The translations under genes were made by a program, and so were the position numbers. Source: Hemileia vastatrix (lineage: Eukaryota; Basidiomycota; Pucciniomycetes; Pucciniales; Zaghouaniaceae). From it: DNA of 64,000 nucleotides. How positions within the stretch are numbered: position 1 is the stretch's first letter; every line of letters starts with the position of its first letter. This document shows, in pieces, positions 16,917 through 55,932 of this stretch. The stretch is from contig JASXTE010000019.1 of assembly GCA_030280995.1 (NCBI GenBank), forward strand, positions 7,427,501-7,491,500, written 5' to 3'. The notes below the pieces were generated by a model that did no database searches, was not told where the DNA came from, and saw only the letters and a program-made list of their open reading frames with translations.

Positions 16917-16919
16917 AAT

Positions 16920-17303
16920 AGGGGGTGTCAGTTCTGGCAAATCCGCACTTAACTTAAGTGCGGATTTCAAACCAAATCAGCACTTACAAATCAGCACTTA
17001 AATTTTGCAAAAAAGTCACTTATTTCAAAAAAGGGTGTCAGTTATGACCTCAAATCAGCACTTTTTTCCCGTTTTTTTTCACAACCACATTTTGGCCACA
17101 AAACATCCCTTCCTTTCTTACCCCATCTCTGTCACATGTGACACACTGACCTTCCTCGCTACCTACTGATCAATCCTCGGCACACACCCCTTCCTGACAT
17201 TTTCAATATTTTTGCCAGGTATGTTTACATTCTTTTTTACTTATTTCTTCTACTTCTTAATCTTTTTTCTATGGGTGTCAGTTCTGACCTCAAATCAGCA
17301 CTT
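16920..17303. promoter_or_regulatory. Left subterminal motif array of transposon A
   Basis: AAATCNGCACTT occurs at 16939, 16974, 16988, 17052 and 17292, and inverted at 16956. The first two inverted units form a perfect 29-bp palindrome at 16939-16967 (14-base arms, one central base). The block from GTGTCAGTT to the AAATCAGCACTT motif is directly repeated (17036 and 17276). Likely transposase or SANT-protein binding sites (inference). Confidence 0.7.
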
Positions 17304-17330
17304 TTTTTGTGATTTTTTTTTCAAAACCAC

Positions 17331-18540
17331 ATGTTGGGCACATCATCCCTTTCTTTCCCATACCATTTTGTACTCTCCAAATGTCCTCTTTGTGTACTTC
17401 ATTCACTTGGGTTAGTATTTTGGTTTGTTGCATATTCATTTTTTTTTGGAATTTACGGTGAAATTTTTTTTTTTGGATGGCTCATTGGTTTTCTTTCACC
17501 AGCTCAACATGAAATTGCATATTTTCTGAAATCACATATTTTGTCAGTGATTTTTTTTTTTCATTCATCCCTCATATCCTTTTCCTATTCTCCTCCAACA
17601 TCCCTCAAACAATTTGGTTTCATTCATTTTGTCATCTCATCTCTCCAGGTAAGTCACTTTATTCTTTTTTTTTTGATTTTTTGATTACTTTTATAATTTT
17701 TTTTTGTTTTTTTCTGTTTATTTTATTTTTTTTTATCTAAATTTTTTTTGTAAGTGGTTATTTTGGATTTCAATGGTATAATTAACCTTTTTTTTCTCTC
17801 CCTCTTTACTTTCTTTTTTAGCTCCATCACCCTACTCTTCATCCCTCCTTGGCATGGTCATTATCCCCCCTTTCCCTTATTTCACTTTTTTTTGGCTCCA
17901 TTTCATTGAAACAAATACATTGCACATTCTTTATGCATTTCACTTACTCCATATTCAATTTCCCCACAATTCCAACATCAATCTTTCTCACTCTATTTTT
18001 CCTACTTTTCAATCAAGGTAAGTTTCATCTCCTTTTTTTTCATGCCTATATGATATCTCATTCCTTTTATGAAAATTTCATACTTAAATATATGTATGAC
18101 TCTTATCTGGATAACAGTGAACTTATAAAACTCCTTTTGATCTCATCTTCATTACCACTTTTCAAGTTTTTGTAAAATTTTGAGAATCAGACTCGGAATT
18201 AGGGTTAGGTTTATTCAAATCTAATGTTCTTTTTACTGAAGATTCTCCTGAAGGCTACCGTTCATTTCCCACAAACAGATTTGAATTTGATTCAGTGGTT
18301 TCTGAGATATTGACCGTTAAAGTTGAGCCTTTTTTTTCCCAATTTAAATTTTTATTTCATTTTTTATGTAACAAACTAGGGTTAGGTTTATTTAAATCAC
18401 ATGTCCTTTAACTGAAGATTCTACTAAAGAATATCTTTCATTTCCCTCAAACAGGTTTGAATTAGGTTCAGTGGTTGCTGAGATTTTGACCTTTGAAGTT
18501 GAGCCTTTTTTCCAAATTTCACTTGTCTTATTTCACATTT
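17331..18540. other. Transposon A non-coding, T-rich region
   Basis: Homologous to DNA after the transposase in B and C (shared GGATGGCTCATTGG, TCACCAGCTCAACATGAAA). A block with AGGGTTAGGTTTATTNAAAT is repeated near 18200 and 18379 (direct repeat of about 110 bp). The Phe/Leu-rich reading frames here are not conserved as protein. Confidence 0.6.
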
Positions 18541-18616
18541 TTATATTGCATATTTAGAGGATAAGGATTCTGAAACTCTTATATGATTATTATCTAGGCA
18601 TTTCAATTATATAGGC

Positions 18617-19242
18617 ATGTATTCATTGCTCAAGAATATCACTAAAGCTCAGAAAGATGAAGATTTTTGCTTATGGGACACTCTACCTTCCTTTAACTCT
18701 TTTCTTGCTCTTCGACTCAAAAAGCACTGTAATAAAGCATTTGAAAAAAATCATGAACTTGAAACCAAAGTTGGAATACTGAATTGGTGTGACTCCGAAT
18801 GGGAAGATATCAGCCACGAATATATTTTATTTTCTAATGTTATTATCACTCATTCTGGATTTCACAATAAAATTCACACCGATACCAAGGACACCAATTT
18901 TCTTACTTTTGGTATATTATCATATATCAAACCGATTACTGGCCAACCAATACCATCTCCAGCTAAAATCAAATGACATGGTTTATATTTTCCAGACCAC
19001 CGGTGCATCATTGATTTTGGTTTGGAAATGGTATCATCGAAACTATTTGGAATTCTTCTAAGGATAATCATCAAACGACCAAAGCTCCTCCTGGTTCGGA
19101 ATCCTGTCAAGATTTAACACATTTTGGTTGCTCATTTCAAATCAGTCATAAGTTGATTCAAAGAATCAATAAGGTAATGAAAGAAGGCAAAGTTATTCGA
19201 TTTAAAAAAACTTTATCTAGATCCAAAAAGTATGGGGATTAG
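18617..19242 (+). pseudogene. TET/JBP-like 2OG-Fe(II) oxygenase, copy A (catalytic exon only)
   Basis: Matches the second exon of the copy in B. A conserved acceptor (ATATAG|GC) lies just before. Core motifs: FCLWDTLPSFNSF, the Fe ligands in HNKIHTDTKD (HxD), ITGQPIPSPAKIK, and distal DNHQTTKAPP with the second Fe-binding His. The family oxidises 5-methylcytosine or thymine in DNA. Breaks: TGA after PSPAKIK (a Gly in B) and a one-base deletion in an A run shortly after, then an open frame to TAG 19240-19242. The first exon seen in B is not found. Confidence 0.75.
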
Positions 19243-19540
19243 AGTTGTCATCGAAAATTTTATATTTTTTGGTAAATTTTTAATAAATATTTTTTATGTA
19301 TCAATTTCCTCAACTAAAGTAATGGGCCCATGACCTTGTGTTGTATAAATGGTAATCATGATAACATTTATTTGTTTCATGGGGTTCCTCTAGCCTATAC
19401 CTGTGGAAAGTCCCAAACTTTTGTTTCTAGATTTGATCTGCATTTTGGCTTGAGGGATTGTCATTACTTTAAACTAGGTAAATTGATATATATTAGATAT
19501 TTATTTAATAATTTATGTAATTATATTAAATTTAGATGAC

Positions 19541-19725
19541 TTCCACCACTTACTTCAATAAAATGCGGGGGGGGGGGGTATTGCCAAATTTTCAAATCTG
19601 ACATGTGAAATTGATGACTTAGAAAAATTTTGGTGATATCCACCCCTTGCTTCAATAAAATGCAGGGGAGAGTATTGCAAATTTTTTAAAACAGATATGG
19701 AATTTATTGACTTGTAAATATTTTG
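19541..19725. repeat. Two tandem ~95-bp units downstream of TET gene A
   Basis: Units share CTTCAATAAAATGC followed by a G-run and ATTGC(C)AAATTTT. The same place in C (53818-53965) has two units and in B (34125-34205) one. Confidence 0.7.
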
Positions 19726-19741
19726 GTGAATATTTTTGACG

Positions 19742-20379
19742 AGAATGTGAAAGTAATTGTTTCAACCTTGAGCAGGTTTCTGGCTCAAAGGAATAGCAGT
19801 ACCATCAACAACACCAATACATCCTGGGAAGCCCTCTGCTTGCATAACCTGAGATGATTCAAGTCGCTCTTCTTTTGTTGGCCAGGTGAGAAGTTGAGAT
19901 TACAAGGAGTTGATGGCAGTGATACATTGTTTGGTATAAGTGTTAACTGAACCATACCCTAAATCAAAGACATTTTCTAAACGTTTCAAAGCGGCTCCAT
20001 TACCATTTGAACCCTAATGACATAGTGTGATGGCCAATTGAATTGAAGGATGTTGTTGTTCTTTTTGAGAATTATTGTGAAATATGGGATGATCCTGAAT
20101 AAGCTCAAGCAATTTAAGGAAACAATCCTGAGAAGTCCTGAACAGCTGTCTAAAACTGGGTGTAGATAGTTTAAGAAGTTTTTGGATGGTGTACTTGGGG
20201 GTATGAAGTACTTGAGGCTTTCTGGGAAGAAGGTAATGTTTTGTGGCCATTTTTGATAAAAAGACAAAATCTTCTTCTATATCAGAATCATAATTGCAAT
20301 CAGAGTCCAAGAGCAGTTCAAGAGCCATGAAAGTCATTGCTTTATGTAATTTATCACAATTTGAAAGTGAGGAAGGCAT
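19742..20379 (-). pseudogene. Harbinger-type transposase, 5' fragment, copy A
   Basis: Start MPSSLSNCDKLHKAM, acidic Asp/Ser segment, then FVFLSKMATKHYLLPR; matches the first half of the B transposase. The helix-turn-helix-like segment LFRTSQDCFLKLLELIQDHP is conserved. The first catalytic Asp survives in GVVDGTAIPLSQKP. Stops: TAG after ITLCH, TAA in INSL*SQ, TGA after KPAQG. The sequence then ends and adjoins the 3' region of the TET gene, so the second Asp and Glu are missing. It reads inward from the right terminus. Confidence 0.75.
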
Positions 20380-20508
20380 AACTCTTATATGATATGATAT
20401 GAAGATGTAAGTGATGTACGATGTTTTGAGTTATGAAGCGTTATGCTGCGAAGTGCTGCGTATGAATGGGATGATGCTGACAAATCAGTGAAATGGGACT
20501 TGATGGTG

Positions 20509-20687
20509 AAATCAGCACTTTTGGTTGAGAAAGTGCAGATTTGAGTGAAATAAATGACTTATTTCATTCTGAAATCCACCAGTATTGGGGCTAGTGTGTT
20601 TTGGAAATCCGCACTTATTTAAGTGCAGATTTGGTCAAATTTAAGTGCGGATTTGTAAGTGCGGATTTGCCAGAACTGACACCCCCT
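20509..20687. promoter_or_regulatory. Right subterminal motif array of transposon A
   Basis: The AAATCNGCACTT motif occurs at 20509 and 20605 and inverted at 20531, 20621, 20643 and 20657, six copies in 160 bp. 20605-20632 is a near-perfect palindrome (one mismatch). Confidence 0.7.
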
Positions 20688-20690
20688 AAT

Positions 20691-28744: not shown

Positions 28745-29462
28745 AAAATCCACTAGAGTTCACAGACCTTCAATCCAGATGACGTCACTGCTCTCCCTGG
28801 AAATTACAGCACTTTGAGAGCCAATCACCTGCCCATGGTGTCTAATTCAAAAAGTTTCAGTCACCTAGACCTCCAGTAAGGACCTTACATCACAATTAAT
28901 GATATCATAAACCCATACCATAAATAGAGAAAACAGATAAAAGTAGATACCATAACAAAACAGGTAAAATAACTCATCCAAAGAGTATATAATAAAAACT
29001 AAAGCATATAAAGGAACAAAATCAACTTTACAAGCCCCAAATAAAGTCCTCAAGCATTTATATTAACCCAGTAATTATATCCCAAAACATAAATCTGTGA
29101 AAATATATCAAAGGAAGCAGATTAAGTTGTCCAAACTGGATATATGTGCATGAAAATGGTGTATATGCTTGTGCAGATGTGGCGAGTCCATTAAATACAT
29201 TCATATGACCTAAAATAAGCAGAAAAGTAAAGCTTATAGGCTATGTAGAGGTTAGAACCCACTTATATACCTATATATACATAATATAACTACATATTCC
29301 ACTGAATATGAGGTTTATGCATACATATAAGCCTATGTATGTCTATAATTACTTAATGTCGCTTAAGATAAGTATATTACGGGTTATCAATGTTCAGAGA
29401 TCAGCAATTAGGGATAAGGAATTTTTTTTTTGGGATCAGACATTATTACTTGCAGAAGATTC

Positions 29463-29492
29463 TTATCCACTAGCCCCAGGGCTAGTGGATAA
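29463..29492. promoter_or_regulatory. Left subterminal palindrome of transposon B
   Basis: TTATCCACTAGCCC and its exact complement flank CA. A decayed copy is at 47425-47454 in C. The surrounding 29420-29560 also has an outer pair (TTTGGGATCAG / CTGATCCCAAA). Confidence 0.7.
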
Positions 29493-29843
29493 CTAATCCA
29501 CAATAATGAATTATCCCGCCTCTTATACCCCAATTTCTGTTCCTTATTCCTGATCCCAAACTCATCACATCCATGATTGATTTGTAAGAAAGTCACATGA
29601 CTTATAATTTCTGATGCTATCCTTAAGTCTTTCCTCACTCTATGATACTAAATTTTGGTGGCAAACACATAACATTTTTTCTCATCCTTATGTGTCTCTT
29701 TGCTCTCTATGATACTTAGTTTTGGTGGCAAACACATAAATTTTTTTTTCTATCTACACACCCCACCTGCTCATTTGGTGGAGAATTCCTACTTTCCACT
29801 CATCACCTAAACCTTCTACTGACAGCCTTTTCTACTGACAAAA

Positions 29844-31106
29844 ATGAAGCACCTCTCTACTAGAAAGAAAATCCACACTTTTATGAATGCTATCACTTTA
29901 GTTTTAGCTGCTGACTCTGATTCTGACTCTGGTTTGGAAGACACTTTAGCTGATATGTCTTTTCTTTCCAAAAAGTATTACATCATCCCAAGGGGGCCAA
30001 ATATTTATCATGATCCCAGATATGATCTCTGCTCCATTCTCAACATTCCAATACTAAACTTCACTCAACTATTTTTAACTTCTCATGATTCTTTTCTCAA
30101 ACTTTCTCAACTCATCTTCAATCATCCTATATTCCATAATGATTCACATAGCAAACAGTGTGATCCTTCCTTTCAAGTTGCTGTCACACTATGTTGCTTT
30201 GGTTCAAATGTAAATGGTGCTGCTGTAAGACATTTAGATAATCTCTTCACCATAGGATATGGTACCATCATATTATACACCAAGAACTGCATGATTTCTA
30301 TCTTTTCTCTCAAGTCTCAAACACTTGCTTGGCCAACTCCACAACAGCGACTTGAATCCTCTCAAGTAATGCAAGCCAAAGGTTTCCTTGGATGTGTAGG
30401 TTTTGTTGATGGTACAACTATACTAATGAGTCAAAAGCTTGCTCATGATGGCAACCATTTTTTTGATTGCAAAAAAAGGTTTCTTCAAAATGTTCTCCAA
30501 TTTCTCATCTTTCATAAACTAACTTTTTATCTTCCTTTTAGATACTCTATTTCCATTCAAATTGTCTGTGACATCATCAAAAAGTTTTTTGCTTTTCATA
30601 GTGGCTTCCCCGGCTCATTTCATGACTCTTCTGTCTTCCAAAGAATGAGGATTTCCCAAAGTCCTGACTCATACTTTGACAAATCTCAGTACCTCCTTGC
30701 ACACTCAACATATGCAACTGGAGAGTACATTATACCTGCTTTCTGTGGTGCAACCTTAGAAAATGACCCCAAAACCACCTTTTATTATCACCTTGCCCAA
30801 TAAAGAGTATGGATTGAACATGCTATTTGGATTTTAAAGGGAAGATTTTCTAGTCTTTGGGAACTCAGAATATAATTTCAAAAAAAAATGGAAATAAAAA
30901 CTGCAAATCATTGGATAATGACTTGACTTATACTCCACAATATCCTAGCTGATTTAAAGGATGAGTGGAATGATCTTTATGAAGAAGAGGATCCTGAACC
31001 AGAGTCAGCTATCCCCTCCCTTGAATCACAAAACATTCATTCAATTGGCATATGCTCTGTCCTTATGCCACTCACCCTCCACCATTTTGACACACAACTC
31101 TTTTGA
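29844..31106 (+). pseudogene. PIF/Harbinger-type DDE transposase, copy B
   Basis: Start MKHLSTRKKIHTF, then an Asp/Ser-rich stretch. Catalytic region: GFVDGTTILM (first Asp); after removal of a 63-bp intron (30479-30541, AG|GTTTCT..CTTTTAG|A) the frame gives KKRYSISIQIVCD (second Asp), then FHSGFPGSFHDSSVF and RVWIEHAIWILKGRF (Glu), all in the DDE_Tnp_4 pattern. Breaks are TAA 30801-30803 just before the Glu segment (Ser in copy C), TAA 30873-30875 and TGA 30924-30926. The intron is a stop-free multiple of three. It would cut and paste elements with these termini. Confidence 0.82.
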
Positions 31107-31509
31107 TTTTTTGTTTTCATGCTCTGCAAATGTCCACTTTTTATACTTTACTCACTTGGCTTGGTATTTCTGTTTGTTTCATGTTCTTTTTTTTGAATTT
31201 ATGGTGAATATCTCTTTTTTGGATGGCTCATTGGTTTTCTTTCACCAGCTCAACATGAAATCACATATTTTCTAAATTAACATAATTCTTCAGTGTTTCT
31301 TTTTTTCATTCTTCACTCATATCCTTCTCCTCCTCTCCTCAAACATCCCTCAAATATTTTGGTTACATTTTTTTAACTCATCTCACCAGGTAAGTCATTT
31401 TTCATTTTTGTTGATTTTTTATTTTCTAATCATGAATTTTTTTTGTTTTTTTAATTTAATTTAATTATTTTTATTTGTAAGTGCTTCACTTATTTTTTTT
31501 CAAGGTTAG

Positions 31510-32110
31510 ACTAATTTTTTTTTGTTTTTTCTCTCCCTCTTTTCTCTCTTGTCCTGCTCTTTTTCTCTCCTTTTCACCCTTCTTGACAGCCTCAATCCCC
31601 CCTTCCCCCCCTTATTCTCTTCCTCACCCCTCATTCCTCACCTTTCCTCACCTTTTCCCCCCTTTTATCCCCTTTAGACTTTTTTTTTGCCCTCTTTAGG
31701 CCCCTTATACCCCCCTTTAGGCCTCCTTACCCCTCTCCCCCCTCATCTCCCTATCCCCTCCACAACTTCCCCCCCTCTCCCTCTCTCCCCTCCACCACTT
31801 AGGGGTGAGAGGGGAGGGGGAGGGGGGGAAAGGGATAAGGGGGGAGGGGAGAGAGGTGGAGGGGAGAGGGGGATCAGGGGGGAAGTGGTGGAGGGGAGAG
31901 GGGGATGAGGGGGGGGGGGGAAAGGCAGTAAAGGGGGGTGAAAGATGTGTCTGAAGGGGGGAAAAAGGCACCTCAAGGGGGTGAAAGGGAGGAGGAACTG
32001 GTGAAAAAGGGAAGTAAGGGGATTTTGAGGAGATCAAGTAGGGGGAGGGGGGTTTGAGGACACCAAAATAAGGGAAATGATGCAGACAAGGAGGGGAAAT
32101 ATGGGAGAAA
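31510..32110. repeat. Pyrimidine-to-purine strand switch in transposon B
   Basis: About 290 bp almost purely C/T switches at 31801 to about 300 bp almost purely G/A. Inverted parts pair exactly, for example CCCCTCCACCACTT (31787-31800) with AAGTGGTGGAGGGG (31883-31896). C has the same arrangement at 49440-50047. Reading frames here are artefacts. May mark a hairpin, triplex or transcription boundary (inference). Confidence 0.8.
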
Positions 32111-32625
32111 CTTTTTTTATTTTTATTAACAATATTTTTTATTTATTTTTGTTTTTTTACAGAATATCATTATTTTGTATTTTTTTTGGTTTTTTTTTAC
32201 AGAATATTATAAAAAAAACTTTACGGTTCAAGCTGAATTAAAAATAAATTTGGTGTGGTTATAACTTCGATTTTTTATTTTTGGGAATAATTTTTCTGAT
32301 GCAAATTTTTTTTTTTAATTTTTGAGTGTAGTTTTTTTTATCATTTTTTTTTCAAGGACTTTAGGTGGTATATCTAACACCAAATAACTTTAAAATTCAA
32401 TTATTTGGCAAATAATTTTTCTCATGTTTGTTTTTATTTTATTTTGTCTCAATTTTTCAAGGACAGTTTTAGTAATTGATTTCTTTTCAAAAAACAGTTA
32501 TTTGGATTATTTTATATCAATAAATTCACAAGGTTGAAAAAAAAACTAAAATTTGTGAGTTTTGTTTTTTTTCCATTTTATTTTTTTGGTTTTTGACACA
32601 AATTTTTTTTTGTTCAGAGAAAAAA

Positions 32626-33826
32626 ATGTCTATTTCATCAGAATCACCTCTTACTTCTCTATCATCATCCTCTTTATCATATTTATCATCATTTTCAAAT
32701 TCAACTTCATGACAAACATCATCCAAAATAAAATAAAAAAATAATGATGATTGAAGTCAGCAGAATAAAAGAAAATTAAAGAAAAAATTCAATTGAATTG
32801 TATAGTTGTCCATTTATCAAATATTGAGTACTATAAAGCTAGGGTGGATCAAAAAAATTCTTATCCAAAAAAGTTACCAGAAGATATAATGTATTTAACC
32901 AAATCAGGAGAGGATGAAATTAAAGTAGTTATCAGTAATTCTTTTAAACCTCAATTTATTTATGAAAATTATTCTTTTAATGTTTCAAAAGATGAAACAT
33001 TTAATCAACTATCAGATCTCATAATAGCACTATATCAAATGGCTTTGGTTTGCTTACCAATAAGGAATACAAATCTTTTGGGTGGTATTATTATTGGATT
33101 TGGTTGGAGACCAGGATTTGATAAAGGCTATTCTCTTGGTATGTCTGATAGTATATGTTTCACTCTTAAAATCATGTCACTAATTTTATTTCCATAGACA
33201 TCTATTCTTTACTTAAAAATTTATCTAAAGCTGAAAAAGATGACAATTTTTGCTTGTGGGACACCTTACCTTCTTTCAATACTTTTATTTCTCTTTGCCT
33301 CAAAAAACTCTGCAATAAGGCTTTTGAAAAGAATCATCAACTTTCTACCAAAGTTGGAATACCAAATTGGTGTGACTCTAAATGGGAAATAATTAGCAAA
33401 AAATATCTTTTATTTTCAAACGTTGTTATTACTCATTCAGGATTCCAAAATAAGATTCATATTGATAGTAATGACACCAATTATCTTACTTTTTTAATTT
33501 TCTCGTATATAATTCCAATAATTGGCCAACCAATACCATCTCCAGCTAAAATCAAAGGACATGGCTTATATTCTCCAGACCATCAGTGCATGATTGATTT
33601 TGGTTTGGAAAATGGTGTGATTGAAACAATTTGGAACTCTTTTCAGGATCATCACCAAACAATCAAAGCTCCACCTGGCTTGGAATCTTGTCAAGAGTTC
33701 ACACATTTTGGATGTTCTTCTCAAATCAGTCAAAAATTAATCCACCAAATAAACAAGGTAAAAAAAGAAGATAAGTTTAATGGATATAAAAAAACTTTAT
33801 GTAGATCAAAAAAGTATGGGAATTAG
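32626..33826 (+). pseudogene. TET/JBP-like 2OG-Fe(II) oxygenase, copy B (best preserved)
   Basis: A Ser-rich start (ATG 32626) is cut by TGA 32710-32712. The main frame runs from 32793 to 33138, then a 59-bp intron (33139-33197, TTG|GTATGT..CCATAG|A), then a 209-codon open exon to 33826. Core: GFQNKIHIDSND (HxD Fe ligands), IIGQPIPSPAKIKGHGLY, CMIDFGLENGVIETIWN, FQDHHQTIKAPP (distal His), FTHFGCSSQIS. This is the pattern of the Tet-like oxygenase family expanded in basidiomycetes. Where I recall Arg in many relatives (TRxG), this and the other two copies read THFG. Predicted to oxidise modified bases in DNA. It lies between transposase and SANT genes. Confidence 0.8.
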
Positions 33827-34491
33827 TAGATTCATCAAATATTTTTTATTTTTTCATAAATTTTTTAAAAATAGCTCTTATATTTCAAATTACTAGAGTA
33901 AAGTAATGGGCCAACAACTCTGTGTTGTATAAATGGTAATCATGATAACATTAAATTGTTTCATGGGGTTCAACTTGCCTATGCCTGTGGAAAGTCCCAA
34001 ATTTAGTTTCTAGACTTGGTCCACATTTTAGAAGAATGAATTTTAATTACTTTAAAACAAGGCATGTTGATATATATTAGCTGTTTATATATTAATTTAT
34101 GTAATTATATTAAGTTTTGGTGATTTTCACCCCTTACTTCAATATAATTCTGGAGAGGATAGTGCCAAATTTTTAAAACAGATACAGAGTTTTGTTGACT
34201 TAGCTGTATTAAAAAAATTAAATTTAATGATTTGAATGTAAAGAAGAAAAAATGTATGAGCTTTTCAAATTTTTGCAGAAAAAAATTATCTAGAATCAAT
34301 AAATTTAAAAAGTCAGCGCATATGAAATTATCACCAAAAAGAAAAAACACAAAATTAATTTAACCAAACAAGCAAATAATCTAAAATATTGCAAAAAAAA
34401 GTTTCAATTATCAGTGAGGAGTTTGTGCCAAGGATTGATTTTTAGGTTTAATGAATTCTATCAAGAAATCTTTGAAAATGAAATAAAAAAA
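33827..34491. other. Conserved non-coding block after TET gene B
   Basis: Shares AAAGTAATGGGCC, TGTTGTATAAATGGTAATCATGATA and CCTGTGGAAAGT with A (19318-19410) and C (53588-53690). Reading frames disagree between copies, so it is probably a 3' UTR or regulatory segment. Confidence 0.6.
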
Positions 34492-35880
34492 CTAATAATC
34501 AAACATTTTCATTAAGCATTCAATTTCCTCATTTGATTTATTAGCTTTAACACAATCTCTCAAGAAATTTTTTTTTTTGAATCTTCTTCAAGTTTATACT
34601 TTAGTTTTATTTGATCCAATAGCAAATTGTACTCATAAGCCTTCTACTCTTTCTTTATCTTGAATCACTTCTCCTCCAAATCATGCGCCCTCTCATCCCT
34701 CTTTAAAGAAAGCTTGAATTTCTCTCCTACAAGTCATGTGCCCTCTCATCCCTCTGTAAAGAAAGCTCAAATTTCTTCTCCTCCAAGTCTTGTGCCCTAT
34801 CATCCCTTTGTAAAGAAATATCAAATTTTTTCACCTCCAAGTCTTGTGCCCTATCATCCCTTCTTAAAGAGAGCTCATATTGTTTCTTTTAAAAGTTGAG
34901 AGTATCTCTTGCAACTTAGACTTTACCTAGAATGAAAAGAAATATTAACAAAAGAAAAGAAGAGATCACTTAATTATTAAGAGGTATTCTATCACTTACC
35001 AGATTCAGATTTCTCCAGAAAATCATCAATGGAAGAAAAAGGGGTTTGGGAAAAACTATCTCTGTTTTGCTTTCTATGACTGTTGAAATTCAAAGTAGTT
35101 GATGATCTTTGCTTTTTTTTGGGGGTAAAATTTTCTTCTTCACCATTGATGCTAGCTTCAGACTCACTTGCTTGAGGATCCTGGGTTTGTTCATTAGCCT
35201 TTTTAGAAATAAAAAAGTAAAACAACTAGACAAGAAATAAAAACTTACTGGAGTGGGATCATTTTAGTTTATATCACCATAAGGATATATTGGAAATCTA
35301 CCTAGATTTGTTGAATTTAGAACAGGGGAGGCTTGAGTGAAGGAAGAGGATAGGAAAAGATTTCTTTTGAAATCATTTTTGGAGATAGCATCTTCACCAT
35401 CCAACATTTTGGCAGAATTAACATCAGCTTTCTCTACAAAATTAGCATCCATCTCTTTAAAGTATGGACATAGAGATTAAAATTTTATGCCCTTACTGAT
35501 ATCAATGTTGTTAATACCAAAACCAGTAGAACTAGTATTTCCATCTTGTATTTGGCTTGGTTATTCTTGAAATTTTTAGACATCTGTTTAGGCAAAATAT
35601 TAACACTTCTCTTTGTCTAATTTTGTAATTCATTGGCCATTAGAAGATAGCCATTAACTTTTGATGCAGGAGGCCATCCTACTTTAGTTGCATTCTCAGT
35701 ACCATAACAAGAATCATAATTAGTTTTTATTTTAAGCCAGTTTATAAGTATGAGATGATCATCTCTTTTTAGTTGAAAAGTCTTTGATATCTCAGCTGAG
35801 CAGGGGAAAGAGGGAGTAATGAGATTTGAAGAACAACTGGGGGAAGGCTGTCTTTGAGAAGATCTATGATGATGGGGCAT
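34492..35880 (-). pseudogene. Myb/SANT-like DNA-binding protein, copy B
   Basis: Minus strand from MPHHHRSSQRQ (a longer frame extends to 36000). The SANT/Myb-like segment is DDHLILINWLKIKTNY, then GWPPASKVNGYLLMANELQN. Next come a Ser/Asp-rich linker, a 50-bp intron (35248-35199), TPKKKQRSS (possible nuclear signal), a second intron after about 35000, and a C-terminal coiled coil of 18-residue repeats (RDDRAQDLEEKKFELSLQ type) at 34690-34880, ending in TAG 34492-34494. Breaks: TAG 35617-35619 (Lys in copy C), a frameshift near 35550, and a 53-bp instead of 54-bp repeat spacing. Harbinger elements usually encode such a partner, needed for DNA binding and nuclear import of the transposase. Confidence 0.72.
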
Positions 35881-45036: not shown

Positions 45037-45066
45037 CATGTTTTTTATATTTTTAGAGTGAGGGAG

Positions 45067-47336: not shown

Positions 47337-47786
47337 AATAGGGGATATAAATGTTCAGGGATCTGGAATTAGGGATCAGGAATTTTTTTTCTTGGGATCA
47401 GAAATTATTAATTGAGGAATATTATTATCCACTAGCCCTGGGACAAGTGAATAAGGTATCTACAATAATGCATTATTCCACCTCTTATAACCCAATTTTT
47501 GTTCCTAATTCCTGATTCCAAACTCGTCACATCCATGATTGATTTGTAAGCAAGTCACATGAAATATAATTGTGGATGCCATTCTTATGTGTCTCATCAC
47601 TCTATGCTACTTAATTTGGGTGGCAAACACATAAAATTTTTTCTCATCCTTATGTGTCTCTTGACTCTATGATACTTCATTTTGGTGGCAAACACATAAC
47701 ATTTTTTTCTATCTACACACCCCACCTTCTCATTTGGTGGTGGATTCCCACTTCCCACTCATCACCTAAACCTTCTACCAACAATA

Positions 47787-49152
47787 ATGAAGCACCTCTC
47801 TACTAGGAAGCAACTTCACACAGCTATGAATGCTATCACTTTGGTTTTAGCCTCTGACTCTGATTCTGACTCTGGTTTGGAAGACACCTTAGCTTATATG
47901 TCTTTTATTTCCAAAAATCCTTACGTCATCCCAAGGGGGCCAGATCTTTATCATGATCCCAGATATAATCTTGCCTCAATTCTTACAATTCCTCATTTAA
48001 ACTTCTACTGACTCTTTTTTGAAACTTTCTCAACTCATCTCCAATCATCCTATCTTCCATAATGATTTCCATAACAAACAGCATAATCCTACCTTTCAAC
48101 TTGCTGTTGCACTATGGTGCTTTGGTTCAAATGGAAATGGTTCTTCTGTAAGACTTTTAGATAATCACTTTACCATAGGATATGGTACCATCATATTATA
48201 CACCAAGCGCTGCATTATGGCTATCTTTTCTCTCAAATCTCAAACACTTGCTTGAGAAACTCCACAACAGCAACTTGAATCCTCTAAAATAATGCAAGCC
48301 TAGGGTTTCCCTGGATGTGTAGGTTTTGTTGATGGTACAACAATACCTTTGAGGCAAAAGCCTGCTCATGATGGCAACCATTATTTTGATTGCAAAAAAA
48401 GTTTTCTTCAAAATTTTCTCTAATTTCACATCTTTCATAAACTAAATTTTTATCTTCTTTGTAGATGCTCTATTGCCATTCAACTTGTCTTTGAAGTCAA
48501 AAAAAATTTTATTGCTTTTCATAGTGGCTGCTCTATCTCATGTCATGACTCTTCCGACTTCCAAAGAATGAAGATTTCTCAAAATCCTGACCAATACTTT
48601 GACAAATCTTAGTACCTCCTTGAAGACTCAGCATATGCAAGTGGAAAGTACATTATACCTGCTTTCCATGGTGCAACTTTAGAAAATGACCCCAAAATCA
48701 CTTTTGATTATCACCTTGCCCAGTCAAGAGTATGGATTTAACATGCTATTGGTATTTTAAAGGGAAGATTTTCTAGTCTCTGGGAGCTCAAAATCCAATT
48801 TCAAAGAAAATTGAAGATCAAAACTGAAAATAATTGTATCATGACTTGCTTTATACTCCACAATATCCTAGCTGACTTAAAGGATGAGTGGAATGATCTT
48901 TATGAAGATGAGTATCCTGAACCTGTTCCAGCTCTCCCCTCCCTTGAATCACAAAATATTCTTTCCACTGGAATACACTCTGTCATTATGCCAATCACCC
49001 TCCAACACTTTGCAACACAACACTTTTATTTTTTTTCCATACTCTTCAAATTTTCAGCTTGTCTGCTTAATTCACTTGAGTTGGTGTTTTTTTTTTGCAT
49101 ATTCATTTTTTTCTATGAATTTATGGTGAATATCTCTTTTTTGGATGTCTGA
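47787..49152 (+). pseudogene. PIF/Harbinger-type transposase, copy C
   Basis: Collinear with copy B from MKHLSTRKQLHT. A small deletion shifts the frame near 48000. GFVDGTTIPL keeps the first Asp. The intron donor has changed (AAAG|TTTTCT instead of GTTTCT). The codon of the catalytic Glu is TAA at 48739-48741 (RVWI*HAIGILKGRF). The C-terminal part is open (MTCFILHNILADLKDEW). Extra stops are scattered through the middle. Confidence 0.78.
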
Positions 49153-49439
49153 TTTGTTTTCATTTACCAGCTCAACATGAAAGCACATATTTTCTGAAAT
49201 CACATAATTTTTCACTATTTATTTTTTTCATTCATCCCTCATATCCTTTCCTCCTCTCCTCAAGCATCCCTCAAAAAATTTGGTGTCACATATTTTATCA
49301 TCTCATCTCTCCAGGCAAGTCATTTTATTCATTTCTTTTGATTTTTTGTTTTCTAATTATAATTTTTTTTTTGTTTTTTTTTTCTGTTTTCTGTTTTTTT
49401 CAGTGGTTCTTTTTTGTGGTTTTCAAGGTTAAAATAACT

Positions 49440-50047
49440 CTTTTTTTTTCTTTCTCTCCCTTTTTTCTCTTTTTTTTACTCTCCATCATCCCCTCTTTAT
49501 CCCTCCTTAGCCTGGTCATTATCCCACCTTTCCCCCTCCTTAATATCCTGGTTCCCACCTTTCCCTTATCTTTGGCTCCCTCTCACCCCCCCTTTCCTTC
49601 CACCTTGGCTCCTTCAACCCCCCTACACCTGCTTCAAACCTCCCCTATAACCTCCTCAAATCCCCCTACATCTGCTTCAAACCCCCCCTATAACCCCCTC
49701 TTACCCCTCTCTGAATCCCCCCTTACCTGCTCCTGCCTATTTACTTGTTAAAAAACAATTGAGAACAATTGTTTGTTAATAAATTAATAGGGAGGAGGGG
49801 GTATAGGGGGTTTGGAGGGGGGTTTCAGGAGGGGTTTCAAAGAGGGTTGGGGGGCTCTGAAGTGTGTGTAGGTGGTGATTGAGGGGGGGATTCAAGGGGG
49901 TTACAGGAGGGAATCGATGCAGTTTTGGAGAGGGTTTTGGGTGGTATTTTTGAGTTGTTTGGTGAGGTTTTTTGGGAATTTTAGAGAGTTTTGGGGGGTA
50001 TTTTAGGTGTTTGTAGTGAGGGTTTGGGTGGTATTTTGGGGGGGTTT
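49440..50047. repeat. Pyrimidine-to-purine strand switch in transposon C
   Basis: C/T-rich to about 49745, then G-rich from 49785; same position relative to genes as in B. The G-rich half is cut at 50047 by the solo LTR. Confidence 0.75.
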
Positions 50048-51535
50048 TGTCAGGCTGATATCAAGTACAGAGACATGAACTAGCTTGAATTGTCAGTTTT
50101 CTAGAAGATTTTAATGGTCCTATATGAATACTTTAGTAAAAATCTAATAAGTATTAAAATATAACTCAATATAAGGGTCTCAGTAATTTTAATCACACTA
50201 ATTATAAATGGGTCACAATCTTATAGTTGGTAGATATATAGATGTAATAATTCAGATACTATTCAAAGAATTTATAAGTGCTATTGATATTTATTGTAAT
50301 TTTTTTGGTTATATATTTGATTGTAATGATAAATAATGTAGAAAACAAGACCAAAAACCCCCTTCTTTTATACACAATAACCTCCCCAACGACCCCTTGA
50401 TTTACCAGCTCAACACATGGTTAATATCACCTCATTCCAACTAATAAACATGTCTAAAAAAATAAAGAGTGACCATTAACATAATTAGAATGATATCACC
50501 TGCCAAATTATGTAGTAATATGGATAATCCATCAAAAATAAAGAATAAGCAAAAAAGAGAGTATATGCATGTAATACATTAAAATGAAAGACTAAAAAGG
50601 GAAAATTAAGACTAATTATTACTCAATATCAAGGGGGATGAACAGTAGAAATGATGAGGCTAATAATGACATTAAAATATGTGAAATCCCCATTCAAAAA
50701 TAAGCAAAATTGACTGAGAAACACTTAAAAACTCAAAAAAGGGCATTTGATGTGGGTTAACTACATGCAGTCCTTGGAAGGCGCTTGCATAGGTAAATCC
50801 TTGACTAACTTTGGCCAATTTAAGTGTGGTAGTGAATTAATGTGCCAAGCTTGAGTTTATTAATGAAGTTAGTGCATATGATAAGGGTCAATGCATTTAT
50901 AATTAAACTAGGACACTAAAAAAGCTACTGTTGCCTATTTTAGTGTGTCTTCCCACAGTGGGAATAGAAGGTGGGGTAATTATAGTGTTAAAAAGCTAAC
51001 TTTGGTAAAAATGAAGCTATTCACATGGGAAAAATGCAGGCAGTATGTGGCCAGTACACAGAAGCTATTTCTGGCATAAAAACACCAAAATTGAAAATTT
51101 TATTTTTATGCATTTGAGTAGCTAAATAAATAGTTCTAATTAAGACAAATTGATCTGTAAAAGCGCATTTTAAATATTATTAAATTTATAGCGCATATAC
51201 TCAACTATTAAGTGATTTAAAGCGCATTTATTGATTATTACATAGAACAATGAAAACAACAGCTTCAAGTCTACTTAAAAACTATGTAGCCTTATATTTA
51301 TGGTTCTTAATATTACCCTAAAATATTCCAACTTAATATCAAGTATATAAGAGTTATAAAAGCTGGGTATATGAATGTATATAAGGTGTTATAATAGAAT
51401 ATATTGTATTTTATCATAATTTTTACTTTTGTATACAACTTGTGTACTTAAATTTATGGTTCTCATGTATATTCCATGTGTTTAGAATAGCTTATAAGTA
51501 CTTTTTAATCAGTTCTGGGGATATCCAGGCTGACA
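50048..51535 (-). repeat. Solo LTR X, copy 2 (1488 bp)
   Basis: TGTCAGGCTG to CAGGCTGACA, flanked by GGTTT at 50043-50047 and 51536-51540. Aligns along its length with 27245-28744. Younger than transposon C. Confidence 0.92.
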
Positions 51536-51879
51536 GGTTTGGAGGGAGTTTGGAATGGGCTTTGGAAAATTTTTTCAAGGGGAGAAAGGGGACTAAAAGG
51601 GAGTAATGAAAAAATAATAGAAAATTTTTACAGGGACCTATGAGGGTGCAATTAAAAAATTGAAAGAAAAGTATTATTTATATTTAATTTTTTTTTTATT
51701 TTTTTTCAGAATTAACCAAAAATACTTGTCAACTTGAATTAAAGTAATAATAATTCTTATTCATTATTTGATGAAAGTCTTCATGGTTATTTGATTTAAA
51801 TTTTGTGAGTTTTTAATTTATTTATTTTTTAAAATTTGTCTTTTTTTTGACCAGTAAAAATTTTTTCAGAAAAAAAAAA

Positions 51880-52463
51880 GACTTTTTATTCTGATTCAAG
51901 CCTCAAGCCTCTATCTTCATCATCTTCTTTGATTTCAACTTCATTTCAATCATCAAAAAAAAAAATTCAGAAAAATTGTCAAAAAAGGAAAATTTGTTGA
52001 AAAAAAATGTCTATTTCTTCTGATTCAAGCCTTATACATCTATTTTCATCTTTATCTTCTTTATCATTATATTTTATTTCAACTTCATTTCAATCATAAA
52101 AAAAATTCAGAAAAATTGTCAAAAAATGAAAATTCATTGAAAAAAATTTCAGAAAAAAAAATTTCTATTTCTTCTGATTCAAGCCTTATACATCTATATT
52201 CTTCTTTATATTATTTATCATATTCTTTGATTTCAACTTCATTTAAATCATCAAAAAAAAACTCAGAACAATTGTCAAAAAAGGAAATTTTGTTGAAAAA
52301 AATTTCAGAAAATAAAATGTTTATTTCTTCTGATTCAAGCCTTATATATCTATCTTCATCTTTATCTTTTTTATCATCTTCAATTTCAACTTCTTTTCAA
52401 TCTTCTTCAAAGCCTTTAACAATAAAAAATGATTATCAATCTTATCAATGTAAAGATATTTAA
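51880..52463 (+). repeat. Tandem repeats coding a Ser-rich N-terminus of TET copy C
   Basis: GATTCAAGCC recurs at 51893, 52022, 52176 and 52332 in units of about 129-156 bp. In 52116-52463 two units are open and read ISSDSSLI..LSSSLSFLSSS with Lys-rich spacers (LLKKISENK). B has a single short unit (32626-32712). Confidence 0.75.
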
Positions 52464-52477
52464 AAAAGAAAATTCAC

Positions 52478-53513
52478 TTGGATCTTCTATTTGGCCATAT
52501 ATCAAACATCAAGTATTTCAAAACTAAATTTAATAAAAAAGATAAATATCCCAGGAAGTTACCAGAAGATATCAAATATCTAACCAAATTAGGAGGTGAT
52601 GAAGTTAAGGTAGTAATCAGTAATATTTTTAAACCTCAAATTATTTATGAAAATCATTCATTTGATGGAGTAAAAGATGAAGCCTTAAATCAACTATCTG
52701 ATCTCATCTCTATACTATATCAAATGACTTTGGTTTGATTACCAATTAAAGTAAGAATTTGTTGGGTGGTATCATGATTTTTTTTGGATTAAAACCAAGA
52801 TTTATTAAATGTTATTCTCTTGGTAATTCAAATAATTTTTTTGGTTTCATTCTTAATATTCTTTACTCAATTTAATTCTATAGGCATCTATTTGTTACTT
52901 ATAAATTTATCTAAAGTGAAAAAATATAATGATTTTTGATTATGGGACTCCTTACCTTCCTTTAATTCTTTTCTGGCTCTTTGACTCAAAAAACTCTGTT
53001 ACAATGCCTTTTAATCCAATCATGAACATGAAACCAGAGTTGGGATTCCATATTAGTGTGACTCCAAGTGGTAAGAGATTAGCAGTGATTATCTATTATT
53101 CTCTAATGTTATAATTACTCATTCTGGTTTTCATAACAAGATTCATACCAATAAGAATGATGCCAATTATTTTACTTTGGCGATTTTCTCTTATACTAAT
53201 CTGATAACTGGCCAACTAATAACATCTCCAGCTAAAATCAAAGGACATGGCTTATTTTTTTCAAGACCATCAGTTCATGATTGATTTTGGTTTGCGAAAT
53301 TGAATGATCAAAAAAATCTGGAACTCTTCTAAGGATAATCATCAAACAACAAAAGCTCCCCCTAGTTTGGAATCTTGTCACGACTTTACTCATTTTGGCT
53401 ACTCCTTCCAAATTAGTCAAAAACTGAGCCAACAAATCAACAAGGTAAAAAAAGAAGGTAAAAGTTATAAACTTAATAAAATTTTAAGTAGATCTAATAA
53501 TTATGGGGATTAG
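52478..53513 (+). pseudogene. TET/JBP-like 2OG-Fe(II) oxygenase, copy C
   Basis: First-exon part 52478-52738 is open (YPRKLPEDIKYLTKLGGDE) and collinear with B. The catalytic exon follows a degraded intron and has about ten stops or frame changes. The HxD Fe-binding motif reads HNKIHTNKND, so Asp is Asn. Distal parts (DNHQTTKAPPSLESC and DFTHFGYSFQIS) are still readable in the frame 53304-53513. Confidence 0.75.
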
Positions 53514-54269
53514 TAAAGTCATCAAATATTTTTTATTCCTTCATAAATTTTTAATAATTAAATCTGATGTTTCAATTTACTAAACTAAAGTAATGGGCCA
53601 ACAACCTTCTGTTGTATAAAAGGTAATAATGATAGCATTAATCTGTTTCATGAATTTCATCTCACCTATACCTGTGGAAAGTTCCAAACTTAGTTTCTAG
53701 ACTTGATCCGCATTTTGGCTTGAGGAAGTGTCATTACTTTAAAACTAGTAAAATTTAGATATCTTATTTATTTATTTTTTAATTTATGGAATTATATTAA
53801 ATTTTGGTGATTTTAACCACCTAATTCAATAAAATTCAGGGGAGGTTATTGCCAAATTTTCAAATCTGACATGTGAAATTGATGACTTAGAAAATTTTTG
53901 GTGATACTCACCCCTTGCTTCAATAAAATGCAGGGAAGGGTATTTACAAATTTTTAAAAAAGATATAGAGTTTTGTTGACTTAGATGTATTTAGAAAAGT
54001 AAATTTATAGATTTGAATGTTAAGAAGAAAAAATGTACGAGTTATTTAAATTTTTTCAAAAAAAAATCATCTAGAATCAAGACCTTTAAAAAGTCAGCAC
54101 ATATGAAATTATCACCAAAAAGAAATAAAACAAAATTAATTTAAACAAACAAATAATCTAAACTTTTTCAATAAAATGTTTCAAATCTCAGTGAGGAGTG
54201 TGTGCTAAGGATTGATTATTAGCTTTAATGCATTCTATCAAGAAAAATTTGTAAATGAAGTAAAAAAAA

Positions 54270-55626
54270 CTAGTTATCAAGCATTTTCATTAAGCGTTCA
54301 ATTTCTTCAATAGATGTATTTGCTTTAACACATTCTCTCAAGAAATCTTTCTTTTTTTAGCCACTTTCAAGTTGATACTTGAGTTTCATTTGATCCAATT
54401 GAAAATTTTACTCAAAATCCTTCTCCTCTTTATTTATCTCAAATTTCTTCTCCTCCAAGTCATGTGCCCTCTCATCCCTTTTTAAATAAAGCTCAAATTT
54501 CTTCTCCTCCAAGTCTTGTACCCTCTCATCCCTCTGTAAAGAAAGCTAAAATTTCTTCTCCTCCAAATCTTGTGCCCTATCATCTCTTTGTAAAGAGAGC
54601 TCTTATTGTTTCTTTTGAAATTTGAGAGTATCTCTTGAAGCTTCAACTTTACCTAGAGTAAAAATGAATGTTAACAAAAGAAAAGAAAAGCTCACTTAAT
54701 TATTAAGATGTATGCTATCACTTACCAGATTCATGTTTCTCCAGAAAATCATCAATGGAAGAAAAAGGGGTTTAGGAAGAAATATCTCTGCTTTACTTTA
54801 TTTGACTGTTGAAATTCAAAGTATTTGATGGTCTATTCTTTTTTTGGAGGTAAAATTTTCCTCTTCATCATTGATGCTAGCTTCAGACTCACTTGCTTGA
54901 GGATCCTGGGTTTGTTCATTAGCCTTTTTAGAAATAAAAAAAATAAAACAACTTGACAAGAAATAAAAGCTTACTGGAGTGGGATCACGTTGGTTTATAT
55001 CACCATAAGGAACTATTTGAAATATATCTAGATTCTTTGAATTTAGAACAGGGGAGGGTGAGTGGAGGAAGAGGATGGTAAAATATTTGTTTCAACATGG
55101 TTTTTGGAGATAGAATCTTCACCATCCAACATTTTTTCAGGATTAACTTCCACTTGCTTTCCAAAAATACCATCCATCTTTTTAAAGTAAGGACATAAAG
55201 AATCAAGTTTATTGTCTATAGGATTGATGCCCTTACTGACATCAAGGTCAGTGATACCCAAACCAGTGGAAGAAGAAAGAGTCTTAGCCTTCTTGTATTT
55301 AACCTGATAGTTCTTGAAGCATTCAGAAATCTGTTTAGGAAAAAGATCAATCCTTCCCTTTGTCTTATTTTGTAATTCATTGGCCATTAGAAGATAGCCA
55401 TTAACTTTTGATGCAGGGGGACGTCCTACTTTTGTTGCATTCTCAGTACCAAAATAAGAATCATAATATGTTTTTATTTTCAGCCAGTTGATAAGTATGA
55501 GATGTTCATCTTTTTTTAGTGTAACAGTCTTTGATCTCTCAGCTGATCAGGGGAAAGAGGGAGTAGTGGTATTTGAAGAACAACTGGGGGAGGCTGCCTT
55601 TGAGAAGATCTATGATGACAGGGCAT
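54270..55626 (-). pseudogene. Myb/SANT-like DNA-binding protein, copy C
   Basis: Minus strand, start near 55626 (MPCHHRSSQRQ). 55043-55387 is the best preserved stretch (MANELQNKTKGRIDLFPKQI, then YFKKMDGIFGKQVE), which is interrupted in B. C-terminal 54-bp repeats (54473, 54527, 54581) encode the same coiled coil, ending EIERLMKMLDN and TAG 54270-54272. The SANT segment itself is broken by frame changes and stops. Confidence 0.7.
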
Positions 55627-55932
55627 GTTGAGATATTTGAAGATGAAAAGGAGAAGAAATAAATAGATGAGATGGGGAGGGCTTTGAACAGAAATGAATA
55701 GACAGGATGGGAGTGCGCAGCAAGTAAGGAGGCTGGCACATCCAGAAAGTTGTCCAAGATGTGGTTATGAAAAATTTAGGATAAAAATTTCAGATAGAGG
55801 TGAAAATTGGCACATAAAAGGTCTAATAACCCAATTATTAGAAAAAAATAATTGTGGAAGATAATTGGGGTATAATGATTTTTATCTGCAATTAATTTTA
55901 TTGCAGATAAGTCAACATTGATACACCCTAAT

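What the first reader, a model, noticed from the sequence alone, without database searches (positions are those of the whole stretch)
16920..55929. A Harbinger-type transposon family that carries a TET/JBP oxygenase and a SANT partner
Three independent insertions (A, B, C), each bounded by inverted repeats and a 3-bp duplication, all contain a TET/JBP-like 2OG-Fe(II) oxygenase. In B and C it lies between a DDE_Tnp_4-type transposase and a convergent Myb/SANT-like gene, in the same order and orientation. Fungal TET/JBP genes are documented as passengers of KDZ transposons. Here the transposase pattern (VDGT, QIVCD, FPGSFHDS, WIEHA..LKGRF) is PIF/Harbinger. Shared synteny in two diverged copies means the oxygenase is a stable part of the element. 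Possible role (inference): oxidising methylated cytosines at element ends to evade silencing or to license excision.
Basis: partly seen in the sequence, partly recalled or inferred. Interest (0 to 1): 0.93.

Follow-up and report, generated by a model that had tools for sequence, protein, structure and literature searches.

The report
Rust-fungus Harbinger transposons with TET-like oxygenase
In the coffee-rust genome a very numerous cut-and-paste transposon carries, beside its transposase and a probable DNA-binding partner, a gene related to the enzymes that oxidise methylated cytosine; the same combination was reported in 2025 from other rust fungi, but here it has a different target site and the oxygenase gene can be seen being exchanged between transposon families.

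Summary
Elements A (16920-20687), B (29379-36187) and C (47340-55929) have related inverted ends and matching 3-bp duplications (AAT, ATT, AAT). B and C carry, in order, a DDE_Tnp_4 (Harbinger-type) transposase, a Tet-like 2OG-Fe(II) oxygenase (PF20515), and a convergent gene with a weak Myb/SANT match. The genome is almost certainly Hemileia vastatrix. In it, the oxygenase lies in 8 of 10 complete copies and behind 14 of 20 sampled transposases; the third gene lies beside 10 of 10 sampled oxygenases. It is not categorically new: Kojima (2025) described TET+ Harbinger elements ('PHISTA') in other rusts. What differs here: empty sites show a 3-bp AWT duplication, not TA; the third gene looks Myb/SANT-like, which PHISTA is said to lack; and the oxygenase behaves as an exchangeable cassette. 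It is swapped (L039/L047), replaced (L013/L017), and, in element A, captured in inverted orientation from family B into family A. That chimera has multiplied (junction at 40 or more places) although the 6 distinct copies inspected share a stop in the oxygenase. All three window copies are decayed. Counter-silencing through 5mC oxidation is the likely role, but is inferred.

The parts
16920..20687 (.). Element A: 3.8-kb non-autonomous chimera with A-type ends, flanked by AAT/AAT duplication (16917-16919, 20688-20690)
   Evidence: inverted arms of 33 nt, 100% complementary; TSD and ends
17366..19729 (+). Segment of a B-type element (from just behind the transposase stop through the oxygenase) carried inside A, inverted relative to A's own transposase piece
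   Evidence: 94.9% to L016:2150-4507; flanks 97.4% and 95.9% to A-type L042
18587..18973 (+). A: Tet-like oxygenase piece, 129 codons, then a stop shared by 6 of 6 distinct chimera copies looked at
   Evidence: PF20515 E 9.7e-14; shared stop
19747..20687 (-). A: A-type left end with 5' part of the transposase gene (open frame 20017-20430)
   Evidence: 95.9% to L042:888-1823
29379..36187 (.). Element B, B-type, 6.8 kb, ATT/ATT duplication (29376-29378, 36188-36190), inserted in the LTR of a Ty3 element
   Evidence: LTR copy 16410-16440 shows the empty site
29823..30800 (+). B: transposase frame (DDE_Tnp_4), 326 codons, cut by a stop before the last part of the catalytic domain
   Evidence: PF13359 E 4.7e-7, profile positions 27-95 of 158; 100% self hit, next best 82%
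32769..33194 (+). B: upstream frame of the oxygenase gene, probably joined to the next exon by an intron (GT..AG near 33140-33198)
   Evidence: homologous frame upstream in some other copies; no Pfam hit by itself; splice sites read by eye
33170..33823 (+). B: Tet-like 2OG-Fe(II) oxygenase exon, 218 codons, HxD and distal His present
   Evidence: PF20515 E 9.7e-22; alignment A1
35267..36048 (-). B: third gene, Myb/SANT-like family, in pieces (frames 35617-36048, 35267-35476)
   Evidence: 85% to C over the shared part
47340..55929 (.). Element C, B-type, 8.6 kb, AAT/AAT duplication (47337-47339, 55930-55932)
47700..49152 (+). C: transposase gene, broken into several frames
50047..51535 (+). solo-LTR-like insertion inside C between transposase and oxygenase
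   Evidence: 81.8% to 27243-28744
52421..53510 (+). C: oxygenase remnant
   Evidence: 77% DNA identity to B, 80% to A
55046..55546 (-). C: third gene, part of first exon, Myb/SANT-like family
   Evidence: 73-77% to 7 genomic copies; those 7, not C itself, hit PF13837 below cut-off

Best explanation
B and C are decayed copies of a very abundant autonomous DNA transposon of the PIF/Harbinger (PHIS) superfamily in Hemileia vastatrix. It has three genes: a DDE transposase, a Tet-like 2OG-Fe(II) oxygenase in the same direction, and a convergent Myb/SANT-like protein with a second coding part that looks like coiled coil. It inserts at AWT, duplicating those 3 bp (shown). The oxygenase is present in most sampled copies and, between families A and B, shows purifying selection about as strong as the transposase (shown). 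The gene sits in an exchangeable slot between the two other genes and moves between Harbinger families by DNA-level capture (shown for element A, implied by discordant divergence for L047). Inferred: the oxygenase oxidises 5-methylcytosine, most likely in CpG, on transposon DNA and so counters host silencing. Inferred: the SANT-like protein helps the transposase bind its ends, as proposed for other Harbinger elements.
For: Pfam hits. TIR pattern 8225 exact matches against 0 for the reversed control; 7810 with AWT in front. TSD agreement in 12 of 14 B-type and 30 of 31 A-type end pairs under 10 kb. Empty site of L011 gapless only under the 3-bp model, 8 of 8 comparisons; B's empty site fits too (by eye). 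Oxygenase in 8 of 10 complete copies and in 14 of 20 transposase-centred samples, always the same strand; third gene beside 10 of 10 oxygenases, transposase in 8 of 10. Between A- and B-type, dN/dS is 0.11-0.15 for the oxygenase (three by three genomic copies; 0.19-0.20 with decayed window B) and 0.10-0.16 for the transposase. Metal-binding residues: His97 and His162 in 19 of 19 rows, Asp99 in 16 of 19. CpG decay: observed/expected 0.27-0.41 in ten complete copies, 0.05-0.08 in the old B and C.
Against: No enzyme activity, expression or methylome data. Both structure models were poor (pLDDT 44 and 35) and no solved structure was matched. The Myb/SANT match is sub-threshold everywhere, and the one database relative of the third protein, P0121, did not hit it. 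Within the young A-type copies the oxygenase dN/dS is 0.97-2.46, against 0.28-0.57 for the transposase, on few changes. TET-minus copies (L013, L017) have spread, being 0.8% different at separate sites, and the chimera spread with a dead oxygenase, so it is not needed in cis. TET+ copies still lose CpG by transition, with no clear advantage over the single TET-minus pair; and the first 10 kb of the window, outside these elements, has a CpG ratio of 0.34, like the young copies.
Confidence: 0.7

Rival explanations
1. The element is simply a Hemileia member of Kojima's PHISTA lineage; the 3-bp AWT site and the SANT-like match are differences of reading rather than of biology (setting the ends at G gives a TA duplication).
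For: The transposase clusters with rust Harbinger transposases (Puccinia coronata, P. striiformis, Austropuccinia, Phakopsora; local support 0.999). PHISTA has the same three-gene content and PU-type TET genes. The bases around the sites printed are AWTA|GGGG..CCCC|TAWT, so TA also appears repeated.
Against: The empty site inside another copy is gapless only if 3 bp are removed (8 of 8 comparisons). The source says PHISTA third proteins have no Myb/SANT domain, whereas here 7 of 8 and 4 of 4 family members give PF13837 as the only hit, though below cut-off. A second, P. graminis-rich clade exists in the tree and I cannot tell which clade is PHISTA.
Confidence: 0.45
2. By its ANT-type duplication and AG-starting ends the element belongs to the Pangu group of the PHIS superfamily, into which a TET gene has entered independently of PHISTA.
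For: Pangu is defined by 5'-ANT-3' duplications, TIRs of 11-40 bp starting AG or GG, and two ORFs; found in three basidiomycetes (PMC4482050).
Against: Position in the DDE tree relative to Pangu was not testable (no Pangu reference sequences at hand). Nearest relatives found are other rust transposases.
Confidence: 0.2
3. The oxygenase is a neutral hitch-hiker: captured once, carried because it lies inside the ends, without function for the element.
For: Amplified copies exist without it (L013, L017) or with a dead one (6 of 6 distinct chimera copies); dN/dS 0.97-2.46 among young A-type copies.
Against: dN/dS 0.11-0.15 across A- versus B-type and 0.14-0.26 to the third oxygenase lineage, L005; invariant metal-binding histidines; exchanged as well as lost.
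Confidence: 0.15
4. The oxygenase lies near, not in, the elements, by chance clustering of repeats.
For: Repeat-dense window.
Against: Inside matched ends in 8 of 10 complete copies; same orientation in 14 of 14.
Confidence: 0.01

Closest known systems
PHISTA (TET+ Harbinger elements of Puccinia and Austropuccinia; Kojima 2025, PMC12730594)
   Same: Rust hosts; Harbinger-type DDE transposase; Tet-like dioxygenase and a third protein in one element; some families without the oxygenase.
   Different: PHISTA is reported with TA duplications and a third protein without Myb/SANT domain; here 3-bp AWT and a weak but recurrent Myb/SANT match. Hemileia is not mentioned in that paper's main text (0 occurrences).
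Pangu (PHIS group; Han et al. 2015, PMC4482050)
   Same: ANT-type 3-bp duplication, ends starting AG, short TIRs.
   Different: Pangu families are described with two ORFs and no known motif in the second; tree position not tested here.
Canonical PIF/Harbinger
   Same: DDE_Tnp_4 transposase plus (here only probable) Myb/SANT partner.
   Different: Canonical duplication is TWA; no oxygenase.
KDZ (Kyakuja-Dileera-Zisupton) TET+ elements
   Same: Fungal DNA transposons carrying a TET/JBP gene.
   Different: Different transposase and 7-8 bp duplications; no KDZ match here.
IS3EU TET+ elements of rusts
   Same: Oxygenase between transposase and a third gene of opposite orientation.
   Different: Third gene is an alpha-kinase and the duplication is 6 bp.

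Membership tests
PIF/Harbinger (PHIS) superfamily | DDE_Tnp_4-type transposase alignable over the catalytic core | tested here: met
   PF13359 5.8e-26 over 1-158/158 for L013; relatives named HARBI1/DDE Tnp4
PIF/Harbinger group sensu stricto | 5'-TWA-3' duplication | tested here: not met
   AWT before 7810 of 8225 ends; empty sites
PIF/Harbinger group sensu stricto | second protein with Myb/SANT domain | tested here: inconclusive
   PF13837 only hit in 7 of 8 and 4 of 4 members, best E 0.00097, below gathering score; none for relative P0121; model pLDDT 44
PHISTA | TA duplication | tested here: not met
   3-bp model gapless, TA model leaves 3 extra bases, 8 of 8 comparisons at L011
PHISTA | DDE tree position with the PHISTA reference set | not testable with these tools
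   reference sequences are in supplementary files not available; own tree puts it with rust proteins
PHISTA | TET gene plus a third protein without Myb/SANT | tested here: inconclusive
   TET gene and third protein present; Myb/SANT weakly present
Pangu | 5'-ANT-3' duplication confirmed by paralogous empty sites | tested here: met
Pangu | position in the Pangu clade of the DDE tree | not tested
   no reference sequences at hand
TET/JBP-type 2OG-Fe(II) oxygenase (PF20515) | profile match above gathering score | tested here: met
   78.4 bits against cut-off 27 for B; 112.8 bits for L042
TET/JBP-type 2OG-Fe(II) oxygenase (PF20515) | HxD...H metal triad | tested here: met
   His97, His162 19 of 19; Asp99 16 of 19 rows
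TET/JBP-type 2OG-Fe(II) oxygenase (PF20515) | oxidation of 5-methylcytosine | not testable with these tools
   needs an enzyme assay
KDZ transposons | KDZ transposase | tested here: not met
   Pfam scan of L013's transposase gives DDE_Tnp_4, DDE_Tnp_1 and Plant_tran only; similar for L042 and P0001

The most novel reading that the evidence does not exclude
Hemileia holds a TET+ Harbinger lineage that keeps an ANT target site and the Myb/SANT partner, that is, a form between ordinary SANT-bearing Harbingers and the TET+ PHISTA of Puccinia. In it the oxygenase is a moving cassette: exchanged between backbones, replaced by other DNA, and caught in the act of transfer (element A: clear junctions, 94-97% identity to both parents, then amplified). 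This gives a sequence-level case of the TET transfer that the literature I read infers from trees.
Probability: 0.5. Interest if true: 0.66.

Novelty: new variant of a known kind. Interest (0 to 1): 0.52.

Why it matters
Transposons that carry their own DNA-demethylation-type enzyme are a direct form of counter-defence. The Hemileia families are so numerous (8225 exact B-type ends, 5510 exact A-type ends with AWT) that TET+, TET-minus and dead-TET copies with nearly the same backbone coexist in one genome. The open question, what the enzyme does for the element, can therefore be asked by comparing methylation, expression and copy number among them. The chimera shows how the gene passes between families.

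Tried and rejected
Rejected: KDZ affiliation (no match). Rejected: TA as the duplication. Rejected: A as a third independent TET+ element of the same architecture. Led nowhere: protein search with B's oxygenase exon (59 candidates, none significant); PDB profile searches; two AlphaFold models from two- and three-row alignments (too poor for a fold search, so none was run); naming the filler of TET-minus copies (no Pfam hit in 4 frames; its genome search did not complete). The idea that TET+ copies are shielded from CpG decay found no support when five TET+ pairs were set beside one TET-minus pair by inspection. A genome search with PF13837 did not complete, nor one with PF13359; the transposase was searched as a protein instead.
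Full report
WHAT THE WINDOW IS. The window is G000:C19:7427501-7491500 of a 747.6-Mb genome in 791 contigs. The largest contig seen, C26, has 71,415,227 bases, exactly the largest scaffold of the Hemileia vastatrix Race I assembly of 747.98 Mb and 794 scaffolds (PMC10652848, part 1 of 2 of the text read). The host is therefore almost certainly the coffee leaf rust, order Pucciniales, family Zaghouaniaceae. The middle of the window is a nest of Ty3-type elements and DNA transposons (self-comparison; integrase matches).

THE OBSERVATION. Elements A, B and C have inverted ends and exact 3-bp duplications: AAT, ATT, AAT. B lies in an LTR whose other copy (16410-16440) shows the unoccupied site. 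B's oxygenase exon matches PF20515, the Tet-like 2OG-Fe(II) oxygenases, with E 9.7e-22, and A's piece with 9.7e-14. B's transposase matches DDE_Tnp_4 with 4.7e-7. B and C align at 77-84% over three long blocks, apart from an LTR-like insertion in C (50047-51535) and the variable stretch between transposase and oxygenase. B's transposase frame ends early, and C's three genes are all broken into pieces, so none of the three window copies is intact.

GENOME-WIDE SUPPORT. The 16-base end AGGGGGTATCAATGTT occurs 8225 times exactly, against 0 for the reversed control. A 25-base end of element A's family, preceded by AWT, occurs 5510 times. Four samples were read. (i) The ten end pairs 5-8 kb apart among the first 100 listed ends (first 10.3 Mb of C2): transposase in 10 of 10, third gene in 10 of 10, oxygenase in 8 of 10. 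(ii) Twenty of 123 scored transposase hits, about every sixth of the ranking, 3.5 kb behind each: oxygenase in 14 of 20, always on the transposase strand; 6 without, one of them with another transposase inserted. Four of the positives reach the edge of the stretch, so some of the six misses may be too short a look. (iii) Ten of 150 scored PF20515 hits, picked by hand down the list, with 4.2 kb on each side: third gene in 10 of 10 (in L043 its second part only), transposase in 8 of 10, in L044 a short piece at the edge. (iv) Three further copies of the chimera described below. Uninterrupted 454-codon transposase frames occur in L011, L013, L014, L017, L018, L030 and L046. The first-look candidate numbers (18,062 for the transposase, 10,849 for PF20515) are not copy counts.

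TARGET SITE. Of 8225 B-type ends, 7810 (95%) follow AWT. Left and right duplications agree in 12 of 14 B-type and 30 of 31 A-type end pairs under 10 kb among the listed ends. In L011, which sits in the third gene of another copy, removing 3 bp restores that gene without gap in 8 of 8 comparisons, whereas a TA model leaves 3 extra bases in 8 of 8. In window B and C the repeat could by itself be read as 5 bp (TATTA, TAATA), but not in A or in L009. The duplication is therefore AWT, with ends 5'-AGGGG..CCCCT-3'. This is neither TWA (canonical Harbinger), nor CWG or C|TNA|G (Nuwa), nor TA (PHISTA); it fits the ANT of Pangu (PMC4482050, passages and sections 5, 6 and 12 read; PMC12730594).

THE THREE PROTEINS. 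Transposase: L013 gives DDE_Tnp_4 with 5.8e-26 over the whole profile. Its nearest relatives are Puccinia coronata (52% identity) and P. striiformis (51%), then others including Austropuccinia psidii (47%). In a tree of 46 proteins the Hemileia A- and B-type sequences fall in a rust clade with support 0.999; their grouping with each other has only 0.501, and a second clade rich in P. graminis lies elsewhere. Oxygenase: the metal ligands His97 and His162 are present in 19 of 19 aligned rows and Asp99 in 16 of 19. Six A-type copies have it as one long frame of 326-399 codons. B-type copies come in a long form with an upstream exon and a short form in which that exon was not found. Third protein: PF13837 (Myb/SANT-like) is the only Pfam hit, in 7 of 8 rows of the B-type alignment (best 0.00097) and in 4 of 4 further members, of which three are A-type (0.0014-0.0021) and one B-type (0.007), always below the gathering score; the one database relative, P0121, did not hit it. 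The second coding part looks rich in coiled-coil-like repeats (by eye). The AlphaFold models of the third protein and the oxygenase had pLDDT 44 and 35 and are not used.

SELECTION AND EXCHANGE. Between A- and B-type, the oxygenase has dN/dS 0.11-0.15 (three copies by three; 0.19-0.20 with the decayed window B), the transposase C-terminal part 0.10-0.16 and the third gene 0.24-0.32. Within the young A-type group the ratios are 0.97-2.46 for the oxygenase, 0.28-0.57 for the transposase and 0.68-0.84 for the third gene, on few changes; this does not favour recent constraint on the A-type oxygenase. Within B-type the oxygenase has 0.30-0.33. Synonymous difference between A- and B-type is lower in the oxygenase (0.58) than in the transposase (0.71) or third gene (0.71), one pair of copies; the bootstrap tails are 0.046 and 0.0255 and the intervals overlap, so this is suggestive of later exchange, not proof. 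The clearest discordance is L047: against the B-type copy L046 its third gene differs by pS 0.36 (0.27-0.46) but its oxygenase by 0.72 (0.61-0.82). L039 groups with L047 in both trees. In L013 and L017 the oxygenase stretch is replaced by about 1.7 kb of unrelated, apparently non-coding DNA, while the flanks of L013 stay 92-99.6% identical to TET+ L046.

ELEMENT A IS A TRANSFER EVENT. A consists of an A-type right end (16920-17270, 97.4% to L042), a contiguous B-type stretch 17366-19729 (94.9% to L016) that starts just behind the transposase stop and contains the oxygenase, and an inverted A-type left end with the 5' part of the transposase gene (19747-20687, 95.9% to L042). Its right-hand junction is found full length at 40 of 40 scored places, the window's own included, at 97-100% identity, out of 1226 candidates. 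Three further copies read end to end are 3.7 kb with duplications AAT, AAT and ATT. The oxygenase is cut by the same stop in 6 of 6 distinct copies looked at (the window copy, L050, L051, L053, L054 and L055; L049 and L052 are the window copy and the L053 copy again). So the gene was copied from family B into family A, was broken in or before the common ancestor of these copies, and the chimera nevertheless multiplied, presumably with transposase supplied in trans (inference).

HOW IT PROBABLY WORKS. Shown: a mobile three-gene element, target AWT, constraint on the oxygenase between families, exchange of the oxygenase. Inferred from the families involved: the transposase cuts and pastes with the SANT-like partner; the oxygenase acts on methylated cytosine. 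In favour of a methylated substrate, CpG is depleted (observed/expected 0.27-0.41 in ten complete copies, 0.05-0.08 in B and C, 0.03-0.04 in two Ty3 interiors), and 17-33% of the differences between six pairs of similar copies are CpG transitions although CpG sites make up only a few percent of positions. Caution: the first 10 kb of the window has 0.34 as well, so the young copies are no more depleted than that stretch. Against a simple cis-protection model, TET+ copies lose CpG as the TET-minus pair does, and TET-minus and dead-TET copies spread. An enzyme acting in trans on many copies, or one that affects expression rather than mutation, fits better.

WHAT IS KNOWN. Kojima 2025 (PMC12730594; abstract and sections 4, 5, 14, 16, 23, part 1 of 24, and 27 read, plus passages; supplements and figures not seen) describes TET+ transposons of eleven lineages in fungi. 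These include fifteen TET+ Harbinger families in six rusts, their lineage named PHISTA, with TA duplications and a third protein without Myb/SANT domain, and the same counter-silencing hypothesis. Hemileia has 0 occurrences in its main text. A survey of rust transposons (PMC12210899, passages only) has 0 occurrences of TET and of Hemileia. Searches that could have shown a report on Hemileia Harbinger elements with a TET gene (listings only) showed none by title and abstract, within open-access papers. The finding is thus a new variant of a known kind.

Noticed in passing
window 3312-7232: Compact Ty1/copia-type element with 135-bp terminal repeats that are 100% identical and one open frame of 1169 codons (RVT_2, rve): probably a very young insertion.
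   Followed up: partly
window 7954-9936 (-): 661-codon frame with a VTT domain (PF09335), probably a host membrane-protein gene among repeats.
   Followed up: no
window 15467-36404 and 37039-46327: Two Ty3-type elements, opposite strands; the first is opened by element A, element B and a further LTR-like insertion (27243-28744).
   Followed up: partly
L013:2873-4573, L017: TET-minus copies share a ~1.7-kb filler with internal ~126-bp repeats in place of the oxygenase stretch; origin unknown.
   Followed up: partly
L010, L012, L014-L016 versus L011, L018, L046: Short and long forms of the B-type oxygenase gene; the short form lacks a recognisable upstream exon (in L010 the profile match starts at position 51). 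Whether it is functional is unclear.
   Followed up: no
C2 end-pair listing: 27 of 31 A-type end pairs under 10 kb are 2.5-4.6 kb long, so shorter size classes outnumber the 5.8-7.4 kb ones; B-type pairs of 436-1015 bp also exist.
   Followed up: partly
L039, L047: Backbones close to B-type carry a third oxygenase lineage, which includes the best-scoring PF20515 hit of the genome search (L001 = L039).
   Followed up: partly
window 1884-3218 (-): Frame with an endonuclease domain typical of non-LTR retrotransposons (PF14529).
   Followed up: no
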